A stretch of DNA of 64,000 nucleotides from Rhabditoides inermis (lineage: Eukaryota > Nematoda > Chromadorea > Rhabditida > Rhabditidae). The stretch is taken from contig CAWZYM010000327.1 in NCBI GenBank assembly GCA_963966185.1, forward strand, positions 62,001 to 126,000. Direction: 5' to 3'. Both the position numbers and the translations under genes were made by a program. A model generated the notes under the pieces. That model had not been told where the DNA came from and made no database searches. It saw nothing but the letters and a program-made list of their open reading frames with translations. Positions 32,652 through 45,265 of this stretch are shown here, one piece after another; position 1 is the stretch's first letter, and every line of letters starts with the position of its first letter.

Positions 32652-35600
32652 TCAGAGTAGCTCATGGAGGAAGGGACTGTCGATAACAGCCGCACCCACC
32701 GCCACACCTCCCTGAAAACAGTCAATCACAAAAAATACTCTCTGATGCATTTTCGGCATATAAAAAATATGTTTCACCCAATATTAATAACAATATATTG
32801 CAATCATATACAGTACTCTTCCAGGAGGGTACGGTGGCGGATACGGAGGAGGCGGGGGTCTTTTCATGCATTTTCGGCATATAAAAAATGATGCATTTTC
32901 GGCATATAAAAATATGTTTCACCCAATATTAATAACAATCTATTGCAAAAAGGAACCAATTGTGACATAGGACAAATAAAATTAATCGTTTCACCGTTAT
33001 TAAAAACAATTCTCCGTTTTTAAAAAGAACAGCTACATACATTGGCCGTGTTTCAAATGCATTCGCATTCTAACAAAGTCAATGTCAAAGGGTTATCCAG
33101 AACCCCCCCCACTCAACATCATCCAAATATTGAATACGTTTCACCAAATCATAATGTCAAGCCATTCAAAAAGCAAACAATGGACTTGGTCTTTGTGCCC
33201 GAGAAAAAATTAGAAAGATCCTTAACTGACCTCATCCACATCGTGTCCCTTTGTCCGCAGCAGATGGCCCACAGTGCGCGCCGACAGAGCACCCGACGCG
33301 TCTGAAAAGAGAAGAGGAAAAGAAGAAGGGAGAGGTCTCATCATCCTTCTTGTTCCCCCTTTCAATATCTCCCCCCCCCTCTCTCTATCCCCCCTTTCTT
33401 TCTCTCTTTCTCTCTTTCTCTCTTTCTTTCTTTCTTTCTTTCTTTCTTTCTTTCTTTCTTTCTTTCTTTCTTTCTTTCTTTCTTTCTTTCTTTCTTTCTT
33501 TCTTTCTTTCTTTCTTTCTTTCTTTCTTTCTTTCTTTCTTTCTTTCTTTCTTTCTTTCTTTCTTTCTTTCTTTCTTTCTCTCTCTCTCTCTCTCTCTGTC
33601 TCTCTCTCTCTCTCTGTCTCTCTCTTCCCCCCTCTCTCTCACCCTCCCTCCCCCTCCCCCTATATCTCTCTCTCCCTCCTCTATCTCTCCCTCCCCCTCC
33701 CTCTTCCTCCCCCACTCACCCCTCCACACCGTTCCGTATATGCCCAACTCGCTGACCGCCTTGTACATCTTCACATCAGAGAAAGCGCGCAGCAGGTAGT
33801 TCTGCAAGAGGTTGTACAAGTAATAAATCAGCTGATCATTAGCTGATGAGCTGTTAGAATCAACTGATCAATCGCTGATCCTAATCAACTGTGAGTCAAC
33901 TGACGCGTTGACCCTACGCTTTCTGTATCAACCGTATAGAATCAGATTGCTAAACAAGAACAGTGACAAACAGAACATGAATGGCTAATTATAGGAGAAA
34001 AGTAGGCAACCAGAACGATTGGTGATTCAATTAAATTCGCAGTTATATCGCAAGTGTGAAACATATAAGTTCAACAAAAAAACATGCATCTAGAAACAAC
34101 GAAATTCAAACTTCTGCAAAAGTAGAGAACTATTGATCTTGACGATATAATTAGATCGTCAAGATCAATAGATCGATGTCCGGAGCCGTTCACTGGGAGA
34201 CAATAAGGAGGAGCCGAATAAGCCTGTTGGGAATGCACTAATGGGTAACTTACGGATTTCGTGGATTTCGCAACGTGATGATGACGAATGGATCAACCGT
34301 AAGCAAGTATGCAAATGGTCGAGAGAAGTTCGAGAACGTTCGACGTTAGAGGCAACGTGGTCCATATGGCTCACGCGTTCGAAGACGAATCAAGGCCGCA
34401 TACTCTATATGGAAGAAGGAAGAAGATTCTCGAAAGATGCTACCCATCGGATGAGGCTTTGCTATAAGGGAGCAATACCCTCCAAGGACCCATACGGGGA
34501 CTAAACACTAAACCTTTGTACATTCCGCACCAGTTTGTATTTCGTGTTTTGTGTTTTGTCTGCGCCTATAGATAAATCAATATTATTACGCCGGCTATGA
34601 TCCCATTAAAGTTCATTCGTACAGAAAGTTATACAAAAACCGTGAAACACTACCTAGAAAGTCAAAAAGTGACTAGCGTAAGTCGTTTAGTCGTTATGGA
34701 CATCTACCTACTACCAACATTGGTTCCGTACTGGTACTGGACAACTTGTCTCACTTCACAAAAACTACGCTCTCCTGACCCCCCTGCCTTCCCCTTTCCT
34801 GCCTACCTGTTCCACTCTCTAATGCCTCCAGTCTCACGCTTTCGAGTTTTTAAAATTTCGATTTTCCCATGTTATCGGTAATAAACCTATCTATCACACT
34901 GTCAACACTGAGTGAGTGCATCCACTCTCTCTCCCTCCATCCTTCCCTCTCCCGTGCTTCCTCCCCTCTCACCTCCACCACCAGTGGATGGATCCGCTCC
35001 ATGAGAATGTGTGCGGCGCGTTCCTCGAGAGACATCGACGACAGCTTCGACTGCATCACCTCGCCTGCGATCCGAGCATCATCTTCCACGTCCTTCTCTC
35101 TTTCATTCTCTTTCTCTCTCATACACGAAATGAGAATCAGCAAAGTAATGACTCTTCACTTTGAAACAACTGACAAAGCATGTTCACAATACCAAACCAA
35201 AAATGTCCCGTCAACGTCGTGGTCGTAGTTATGAAAAACAAAAATGCGTTTCACTGAGAAAATGTTGTTGAAACGGGTTACGCGAGTATAATTCGTTTCG
35301 CATCAAATCGAATACAAGAGCTGACCCATATCCATATCCTCACACACACACACACACACACACACACACACACACACACACACTCATTCTCTATTCACCA
35401 CACCATATAGTCAGTGTTGGGGAGAGAAAGAGTGCCCCCTTCCCATCTCCCCCCTCCCCACTCACCATAGTAGTTGCCTGCTCCTCCCTCCAGCTGTGGC
35501 TTCAGCACATACTGATCGGGATGCGCGATCGCGTGCTGGAAACGACAGAACAGTCAAGACTACCTACCAAAATGTTTCAGTGAAATATTGAGATAAGACT

Positions 35601-45265: not shown

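What the first reader, a model, noticed from the sequence alone, without database searches (positions are those of the whole stretch)
32771..45145. A field of 21U-RNA (piRNA)-like loci inside the introns of glutathione synthetase
Seen: the core GTTTC recurs far above chance in these introns, usually as ATACGTTTC or ATATGTTTC. At 22 sites (18 plus, 4 minus) a YRNT ends 41-45 nt downstream, most often exactly CAAT at 43-45. Plus-strand G positions: 32771, 32916, 33138, 35248, 35670, 35783, 35952, 40867, 41083, 42466, 42546, 42616, 42698, 42778, 43905, 44651, 45081; minus: 34062, 34648, 41637, 41712, 43984. Every predicted 21-mer lies within an intron; most are antisense to the host gene. Known, from memory: nematode 21U-RNAs have an upstream GTTTC-core motif with the 5' U about 40 nt downstream preceded by YRN; in Caenorhabditis they cluster in repressed domains, whereas dispersed loci in introns of active genes are described in other lineages such as Pristionchus. 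Inference: this gene is an intronic piRNA host.
Basis: partly seen in the sequence, partly recalled or inferred. Interest (0 to 1): 0.9.

Follow-up and report, generated by a model that had tools for sequence, protein, structure and literature searches.

The report
Intronic piRNA genes in a nematode
The introns of a glutathione synthetase gene in an unidentified nematode hold about twenty sites that look like tiny, separately driven piRNA genes, and the same promoter layout, including an unexpected TATA-like box, recurs many times across that animal's genome.

Summary
ATAYGTTTC occurs 14 times in 32.7-45.2 kb against about 0.2 expected.

The genome encodes a Piwi-clade Argonaute. The window sites show a GC drop past the 21-mer, like the pausing signal of known loci.

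This matches the dispersed, intronic 'Pristionchus-type' organisation of Beltran et al. 2019 (PMC6436959). The species was not identified; its GSS is 49-50% identical to two Pristionchus species.

I did not find one feature described in the passages read: a TATA-like TAWA starting 15 nt after the G of GTTTC, in 356 of 2475 sites versus 17 at a 10-nt shift, peaking at the same offset in the window sites. No small-RNA reads were available, so 21U-RNA production is inferred; constraint between copies was not significant.

The parts
32652..45265 (-). Glutathione synthetase host gene, 17 exons, 487 codons with stop: 45265-45176, 44540-44412, 44364-44299, 44118-44055, 43888-43800, 43566-43481, 42421-42341, 41452-41355, 41247-41190, 40797-40686, 40618-40535, 36158-36030, 35535-35466, 35064-34973, 33801-33720, 33301-33231, 32711-32652
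   Evidence: Pfam GSH_synthase and GSH_synth_ATP hits on pieces; spliced model without inner stop, 15 GT-AG introns and one GC-AG; nematode homologues
32767..32834 (+). piRNA-like locus (G 32771, CAGT offset 43); its 21-mer equals a stretch of the neighbouring GY-rich ORF at 32276
32912..32980 (+). piRNA-like locus (G 32916, ATAT core, CAAT offset 44)
33134..33201 (+). piRNA-like locus (G 33138, ATAC core, CAAT offset 43)
35244..35312 (+). piRNA-like locus (G 35248, TAAT offset 44), weaker core ATGC
35666..35732 (+). piRNA-like locus (G 35670, CAGT offset 42)
35779..35848 (+). piRNA-like locus (G 35783, TAAT offset 45)
35948..36015 (+). piRNA-like locus (G 35952, CAAT offset 43); initiator changed in one other copy (L040)
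40863..40931 (+). piRNA-like locus (G 40867, ATAC core, CAAT offset 44)
41079..41146 (+). piRNA-like locus (G 41083, ATAC core, CAAT offset 43)
42462..42531 (+). piRNA-like locus (G 42466, CAAT offset 45), in a local duplication with 42616
42542..42607 (+). doubtful piRNA-like locus (G 42546, TAAT offset 41); GTTTC missing in both other copies
42612..42681 (+). piRNA-like locus (G 42616, core ATAGGTTTC, CAAT offset 45)
42694..42762 (+). piRNA-like locus (G 42698, CAAT offset 44), duplicate of 42546
42774..42842 (+). piRNA-like locus (G 42778, ATAC core, CAAT offset 44)
43901..43970 (+). weak piRNA-like locus (G 43905, TACT offset 45)
44647..44714 (+). piRNA-like locus (G 44651, ATAT core, CAAT offset 43); a one-letter variant is at both places on C326
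45077..45145 (+). piRNA-like locus (G 45081, CAAT offset 44)
33998..34066 (-). piRNA-like locus (G 34062, ATAT core, CAAT offset 44), sense to host
34585..34652 (-). weak piRNA-like locus (G 34648, core TAGTGTTTC, TAAT offset 43)
41574..41641 (-). piRNA-like locus (G 41637, ATAT core, TAAT offset 43)
41649..41716 (-). piRNA-like locus (G 41712, ATAT core, TAGT offset 43)
43921..43988 (-). piRNA-like locus (G 43984, ATAT core, CAAT offset 43); converges on 43905

Best explanation
The sites are tiny, independently transcribed nematode piRNA (21U-RNA) genes in introns of a housekeeping gene. The upstream ATAYGTTTCA core (a form of the Ruby motif) would recruit the SNPC-4/USTC-type complex. A TATA-like box starting 15 nt after the G of GTTTC would be read by TBP. 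Pol II would start two bases before the 5' U, at the purine of YRNT, and pause at the AT-rich stretch just past the 21-mer, releasing a short capped precursor that is trimmed and loaded on a PRG-1-like Piwi. Shown here: motif, fixed spacing, TATA-like box, initiator, GC drop, intronic position, genome-wide recurrence, and exons of a Piwi-clade gene. Inferred from work in other nematodes: factor binding, capping, trimming, loading, and that the host is germline-active.
For: Genome-wide spacing: 2475 at offset 43-44 against 235 at 33-34 and 174 at 53-54; reversed-letter controls 13, 10, 26. ATACGTTTCA alone: 8062 against 320 in the reversed-letter control. Piwi-clade exons at C52: the last 96 aa match Piwi-like 1 at 1.4e-32 against 6.2e-13 for the best animal AGO; for a second piece all 10 hits at E up to 0.001 are Piwi chains. 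22 of 22 predicted 21-mers intronic. GC 0.43 in the 21-mer against 0.33 at U+24 to U+39; 0 of 2000 random draws from nine of the introns reached this drop. TATA-like box at the same offset genome-wide and in the window. Among 86 genome loci the rest of the spacer shows little conservation, so they are not copies of one repeat. The 4.0-kb insertion in intron 11, absent from L039, holds no ATAYGTTTC.
Against: No small-RNA, cap or ChIP data were available. Constraint on the promoters between the three near-identical copies is in the expected direction but not significant: 13 of 915 variable positions in promoters against 98 of 4737 in the rest of the introns, rotation test 0.15 (19 sites, 42546 left out and two not covered). 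42546 has no GTTTC in either other copy. Many motif copies lack the spacing: of 9 ATAYGTTTC in 200 kb of other sequence (20 stretches, 16 of them on C6), only 2 have a YRNT at 43-45. In P. pacificus only a fifth of motifs in predicted active domains gave 21U-RNAs (PMC6436959). The antisense excess here differs from the balanced orientation reported there.
Confidence: 0.9

Rival explanations
1. The sites are generic intronic promoters or enhancers bound by a factor that recognises ATAYGTTTC, giving antisense or enhancer RNAs, and have nothing to do with Piwi.
For: The motif also occurs in close same-strand arrays on contigs poor in spaced sites, so at least part of its use is something else.
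Against: The 43-44 nt spacing to CAAT, the AT-rich stretch right after 21 nt and Piwi-clade exons in the genome together match what is described for nematode piRNA loci.
Confidence: 0.06
2. The sites are copies of a dispersed repeat or transposon that happens to carry the motif and initiator.
For: Some sites are local duplicates (42466/42616, 42546/42698, 32771/32916), and exact copies recur on other contigs.
Against: Among 86 genome loci (copies left out) the motif, the TATA-like box and the initiator are conserved and the remaining spacer positions show little departure from background.
Confidence: 0.02
3. Not exclusive of the best explanation: the loci are piRNA genes by descent, but most of those in this gene are decayed or silent and only a minority is expressed.
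For: 20% of motifs in predicted active domains had 21U-RNAs in P. pacificus (PMC6436959); 42546 lacks its core in two copies; no significant constraint on promoters between copies.
Against: GTTTC is present in 19 of the 20 sites covered in both other copies, and the YRNT in all but one instance (35952 in L040).
Confidence: 0.4

Closest known systems
Pristionchus-type (P-type) intronic piRNA loci, P. pacificus (Beltran et al. 2019, PMC6436959)
   Same: GTTTC-core upstream motif, about 42 nt to the 5' U, dispersed over many genomic regions, in introns, with a low-melting stretch just past the 21-mer.
   Different: Other lineage (GSS 49-50% identical to two Pristionchus species). 17 of 22 antisense in this gene, against about equal orientation there. 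A positioned TATA-like box, which I did not find described for piRNA loci in the passages read.
Caenorhabditis-type clustered type I 21U-RNA loci (C. elegans chromosome IV)
   Same: Ruby motif, YRNT, one promoter per piRNA.
   Different: 88 listed hits lie on 51 contigs rather than two clusters, and here they sit in introns of a housekeeping gene; chromatin state not tested.
Plectus sambesii piRNA promoters (bipartite SNAPc plus Ruby motif)
   Same: snRNA-like compact promoter with GTTTC.
   Different: The paper states that no TATA box was found at piRNA loci there (section 9); here a TATA-like box is present. An upstream SNAPc half was not searched for here.

Membership tests
Nematode Ruby-motif (type I) 21U-RNA loci | GTTTC-core motif upstream | tested here: met
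   22 of 22 sites; 8062 ATACGTTTCA genome-wide against 320 control
Nematode Ruby-motif (type I) 21U-RNA loci | fixed distance of about 42 nt to a YRNT whose T is the 5' U | tested here: met
   20 of 22 at 43-45; genome-wide excess at 43-44 over 33-34 and 53-54
Nematode Ruby-motif (type I) 21U-RNA loci | Piwi (PRG-1) in the genome | tested here: met
   Exons at C52 104586-105670, minus strand; Piwi-clade best hits; the whole gene was not modelled
Nematode Ruby-motif (type I) 21U-RNA loci | pausing-like drop in melting temperature after the 21-mer | tested here: met
   GC 0.43 to 0.33, 0 of 2000 random draws (the window's 22 sites only, GC used in place of melting temperature)
Nematode Ruby-motif (type I) 21U-RNA loci | 21-nt 5'-U RNAs bound by Piwi; capped precursor starting at U-2 | not testable with these tools
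   no reads
P-type organisation | loci within introns | tested here: met
   22 of 22 in this gene; not tested genome-wide
P-type organisation | dispersed over the genome | tested here: met
   88 hits on 51 contigs, but with empty blocks: 1 of 88 in C1-C108, 0 of 88 in C231-C276; 9 of the 88 are the three GSS copies
P-type organisation | about equal sense and antisense orientation | tested here: inconclusive
   17 v 5 in one gene, p 0.017; 14 v 5 after merging duplicates, p 0.064
P-type organisation | H3K36me3-active, germline-expressed host gene | not testable with these tools
   no expression or chromatin data
P-type organisation | depletion on the X chromosome | tested here: inconclusive
   A contig block almost without hits exists, but its chromosome is unknown; unc-3/EBF (X in C. 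elegans, recalled) lies on C398; the glypican marker search did not complete
C-type (clustered, repressed) organisation | loci confined to a few dense super-clusters | tested here: not met
   88 hits on 51 contigs; contigs are not assigned to chromosomes
Plectus-type bipartite promoter | SNAPc half-site 5' of the GTTTC motif | not tested
   upstream flank of the 22 sites is AT-rich; no motif search was made

The most novel reading that the evidence does not exclude
This lineage drives thousands of intronic piRNA genes from a three-part Pol II promoter, ATAYGTTTCA - 9 nt - TAWAW - about 21 nt - YAAT, in which a true TATA box bound by TBP fixes the start. That would give a sequence basis for the TBP-1 requirement seen in C. 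elegans, show that nematode piRNA promoters are not always TATA-less, and place P-type organisation in a separately branching Rhabditina lineage, which bears on which mode is ancestral.
Probability: 0.5. Interest if true: 0.65.

Novelty: new variant of a known kind. Interest (0 to 1): 0.52.

Why it matters
Beltran et al. state that there is not enough evidence to say whether clustered or dispersed piRNA organisation is ancestral in nematodes (PMC6436959, section 18). A further Rhabditina lineage, placed outside the Pristionchus and rhabditomorph species of the GSS tree (a weak split, 83/83), with widely spread motif-plus-initiator sites adds a data point. The positioned TATA-like box gives a concrete element with which to test the role of TBP-1, which Weng et al. 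[quoted passage not shown] elegans (PMC6317315, passages). [quoted passage not shown] briggsae are described as of unclear function (PMC9683057, passages).

Tried and rejected
Rejected: the species as Pristionchus (GSS 49-50% identical to two species; tree). Rejected: a dispersed repeat. Rejected as support: purifying selection on the promoters. A first count looked favourable, but with 42546 left out and both copies pooled the contrast is not significant. Not found: targets of the 21-mers. At up to 3 mismatches there was no antisense match in the window and 36 of the 40 loci held by then (L006, L007, L039, L040 left out); the only hit was the same-strand copy of the 32771 21-mer at 32276. Rfam found nothing in the window at gathering scores. 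Left open: whether the contig block C1-C108, with 1 of 88 spaced sites, is the X chromosome.

Counting notes. The 100 places printed for one search are the first of 131; one search used 86 of those 100, exact and near-exact copies left out by eye. The spacing test covers three pairs of offsets, not a full histogram. Genome-wide counts include repeated contigs, so they overstate the number of distinct loci. The GSS tree used 25 of the 120 listed homologues, hand-picked, plus the window's protein; the window's branch is long. The 5-column profile also scores above background at offset 13 in the window sites (p 0.00025), less than at 15.

Full report
The finding proposed that GTTTC motifs with a YRNT 41-45 nt downstream, in the introns of glutathione synthetase, are 21U-RNA (piRNA) loci. 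I checked the letters first. All 22 stated positions carry GTTTC on the stated strand and have a YRNT at 41-45. The list holds 17 plus and 5 minus sites. The bare core is clearly enriched on the plus strand only; the long form ATAYGTTTC is enriched on both (10 and 4 against 0.05 and 0.16 in Markov sequences), and YGTTTC with YRNT at 43-45 is 15 and 10 against 1.2 and 2.5. In 27.5-55.0 kb, both strands, the 28 A[CT]GTTTC sites have 12 CAAT at distances 43-45 and at most 2 at any other distance from 20 to 79.

The host gene lies on the minus strand. Pfam hits on pieces and nematode homologues led to a 17-exon model, 45265 to 32652, without an inner stop, 15 GT-AG introns and one GC-AG. All 22 predicted 21-mers are intronic, in introns 1, 4, 6, 7, 9, 12, 13, 14 and 16. 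Seventeen are antisense to the gene (p 0.017), but three plus-strand pairs look like local duplicates; merging them gives 14 v 5, p 0.064. ATAYGTTTC density is 14 in 6831 bp of these introns, against 1 in 15302 bp of other window sequence and 3 in the next 20 kb.

The window belongs to a 172.6-Mb genome of 599 contigs. ATAYGTTTC with CAAT at offset 43-44 occurs 2475 times (1209 and 1266), at 33-34 235 times, at 53-54 174 times; reversed-letter controls gave 13, 10 and 26. The counts include repeated contigs. Not every motif copy has the spacing: in 200 kb of other sequence (20 stretches, 16 of them on C6, which proved poor in spaced sites) 2 of 9 ATAYGTTTC have a YRNT at 43-45. A Piwi-family search found 30 matches; those at C52 have Piwi-clade sequence. 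The last 96 residues match Piwi-like 1 at 1.4e-32 and the best animal AGO at 6.2e-13, and all 10 hits of a second piece at E up to 0.001 are Piwi chains. The whole gene was not modelled.

Two further promoter features were not used in choosing the sites. First, GC is 0.43 in the 21-mer and 0.33 at U+24 to U+39; 0 of 2000 random draws from nine of the introns show such a drop. This resembles the pausing signature described for known loci, most obvious in dispersed species (PMC6436959, sections 13 and 18). Second, in 86 loci the spacer departs from background mainly at G+15 to G+19, with consensus TAWAW, that is 29 to 25 nt before the 5' U. That five-column profile, slid along the window's 22 sites, which are not among the 86, is highest at offset 15 (mean 0.52 against a background of -1.80, 0 of 20000 draws), with a lower rise at 13. 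Genome-wide, TAWA at G+15 is in 356 of the 2475 sites and at G+25 in 17. Its distance of about 27 nt to the presumed start is close to, if slightly short of, that of a usual TATA box (recalled). Beltran et al. state that no TATA box was found at Plectus piRNA loci (section 9). A search for papers with 'Ruby motif', TATA and piRNA listed seven; I read the TATA passages of five and found no positioned box described. C. briggsae loci are reported to have A/T-rich motifs on both sides of the Ruby motif (passages), so the box may not be without precedent. Subscription papers were not searched.

Two more copies of the locus lie on contig C326, about 95-100% identical to the window over the main aligned blocks and 88% in a 237-bp piece; they may be alleles or recent duplicates. 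Of the 20 sites covered by both, 19 have GTTTC in both; 42546 lacks it in both, and 35952 has a changed initiator in one. Variable positions are 13 of 915 in promoters, 98 of 4737 elsewhere in the introns and 10 of 337 in 21-mer bodies; rotation tests give 0.15 and 0.18, so constraint is not shown. L039 lacks a 4.0-kb piece of intron 11 (36312-40307) that carries no ATAYGTTTC; L040 has about 0.4 kb of other sequence there. The 21-mer of 32771 is identical to a stretch of the neighbouring GY-rich open frame at 32276, on the same strand. With its upstream part a near-copy of the one at 32916, this looks like a promoter copy joined to captured sequence; that is inference.

The species was not identified. 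GSS is 53% identical to Nippostrongylus, 49-50% to two Pristionchus species and 50% to Caenorhabditis bovis. In a tree of 26 proteins it groups with the 16 other Rhabditina proteins (100/99) but outside them, a weak split (83/83) on a long branch. The organisation is thus P-type in the sense of Beltran et al., in a lineage I could not match to a named species. Spaced sites are unevenly spread: in a whole-genome listing of 88 (ATATGTTTCACA with CAAT), contigs C1-C108 have 1, C109-C230 40, C231-C276 0, C277-C331 36 and C332-C599 11. X depletion is known for nematode piRNAs (PMC6436959, section 10), but the block was not shown to be the X: the one marker answered, EBF/unc-3, is on C398.

The kind is known; the lineage and the TATA-like box are what may be new. 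Whether each locus is expressed needs reads.

Noticed in passing
window 1-27217: 25.4 kb of a 51-bp tandem repeat followed by a second 51-bp array; one plus frame is open for 8011 codons and by eye reads as a Ser/Thr-rich, mucin-like 17-aa repeat. The same high GC continues in the 20 kb to the left (L009, L010).
   Followed up: partly
window 48406-51728, plus strand: Retroelement-like piece: aspartyl protease (below cut-off), reverse transcriptase and RNase H domains in separate open frames.
   Followed up: partly
window 36312-40307: 4.0-kb insertion in intron 11 of GSS, absent from the copy L039; carries 28- and 94-bp internal repeats and no ATAYGTTTC.
   Followed up: partly
G000 C326 about 168-178 kb and 220-230 kb (L039, L040): Two further near-identical copies of the GSS region about 52 kb apart on the contig numbered next to the window's; alleles or a recent segmental duplication.
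   Followed up: partly
G000 C2 159287-159321, C6 398612-398725, C8 222798-222868 and others (one search list): Close same-strand arrays of ATACGTTTCA at about 11-45 nt spacing, on contigs with few spaced sites; the two arrays whose letters were read (L005, L008) have no CAAT at 43-44. Unexplained second use of the motif.
   Followed up: partly
window 32072-32605, plus strand: Open frame rich in Gly, Tyr, Ser and Pro converging on the GSS 3' end, without a Pfam match; part of it is repeated in the last GSS intron.
   Followed up: partly
window 55408-64000: Arrays of an about 495-bp tandem repeat; 46653-48151 holds further 253-297 bp repeats.
   Followed up: no
G000, 47 places: U6 snRNA genes and fragments, six with the same top score; their promoters were not read.
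   Followed up: no
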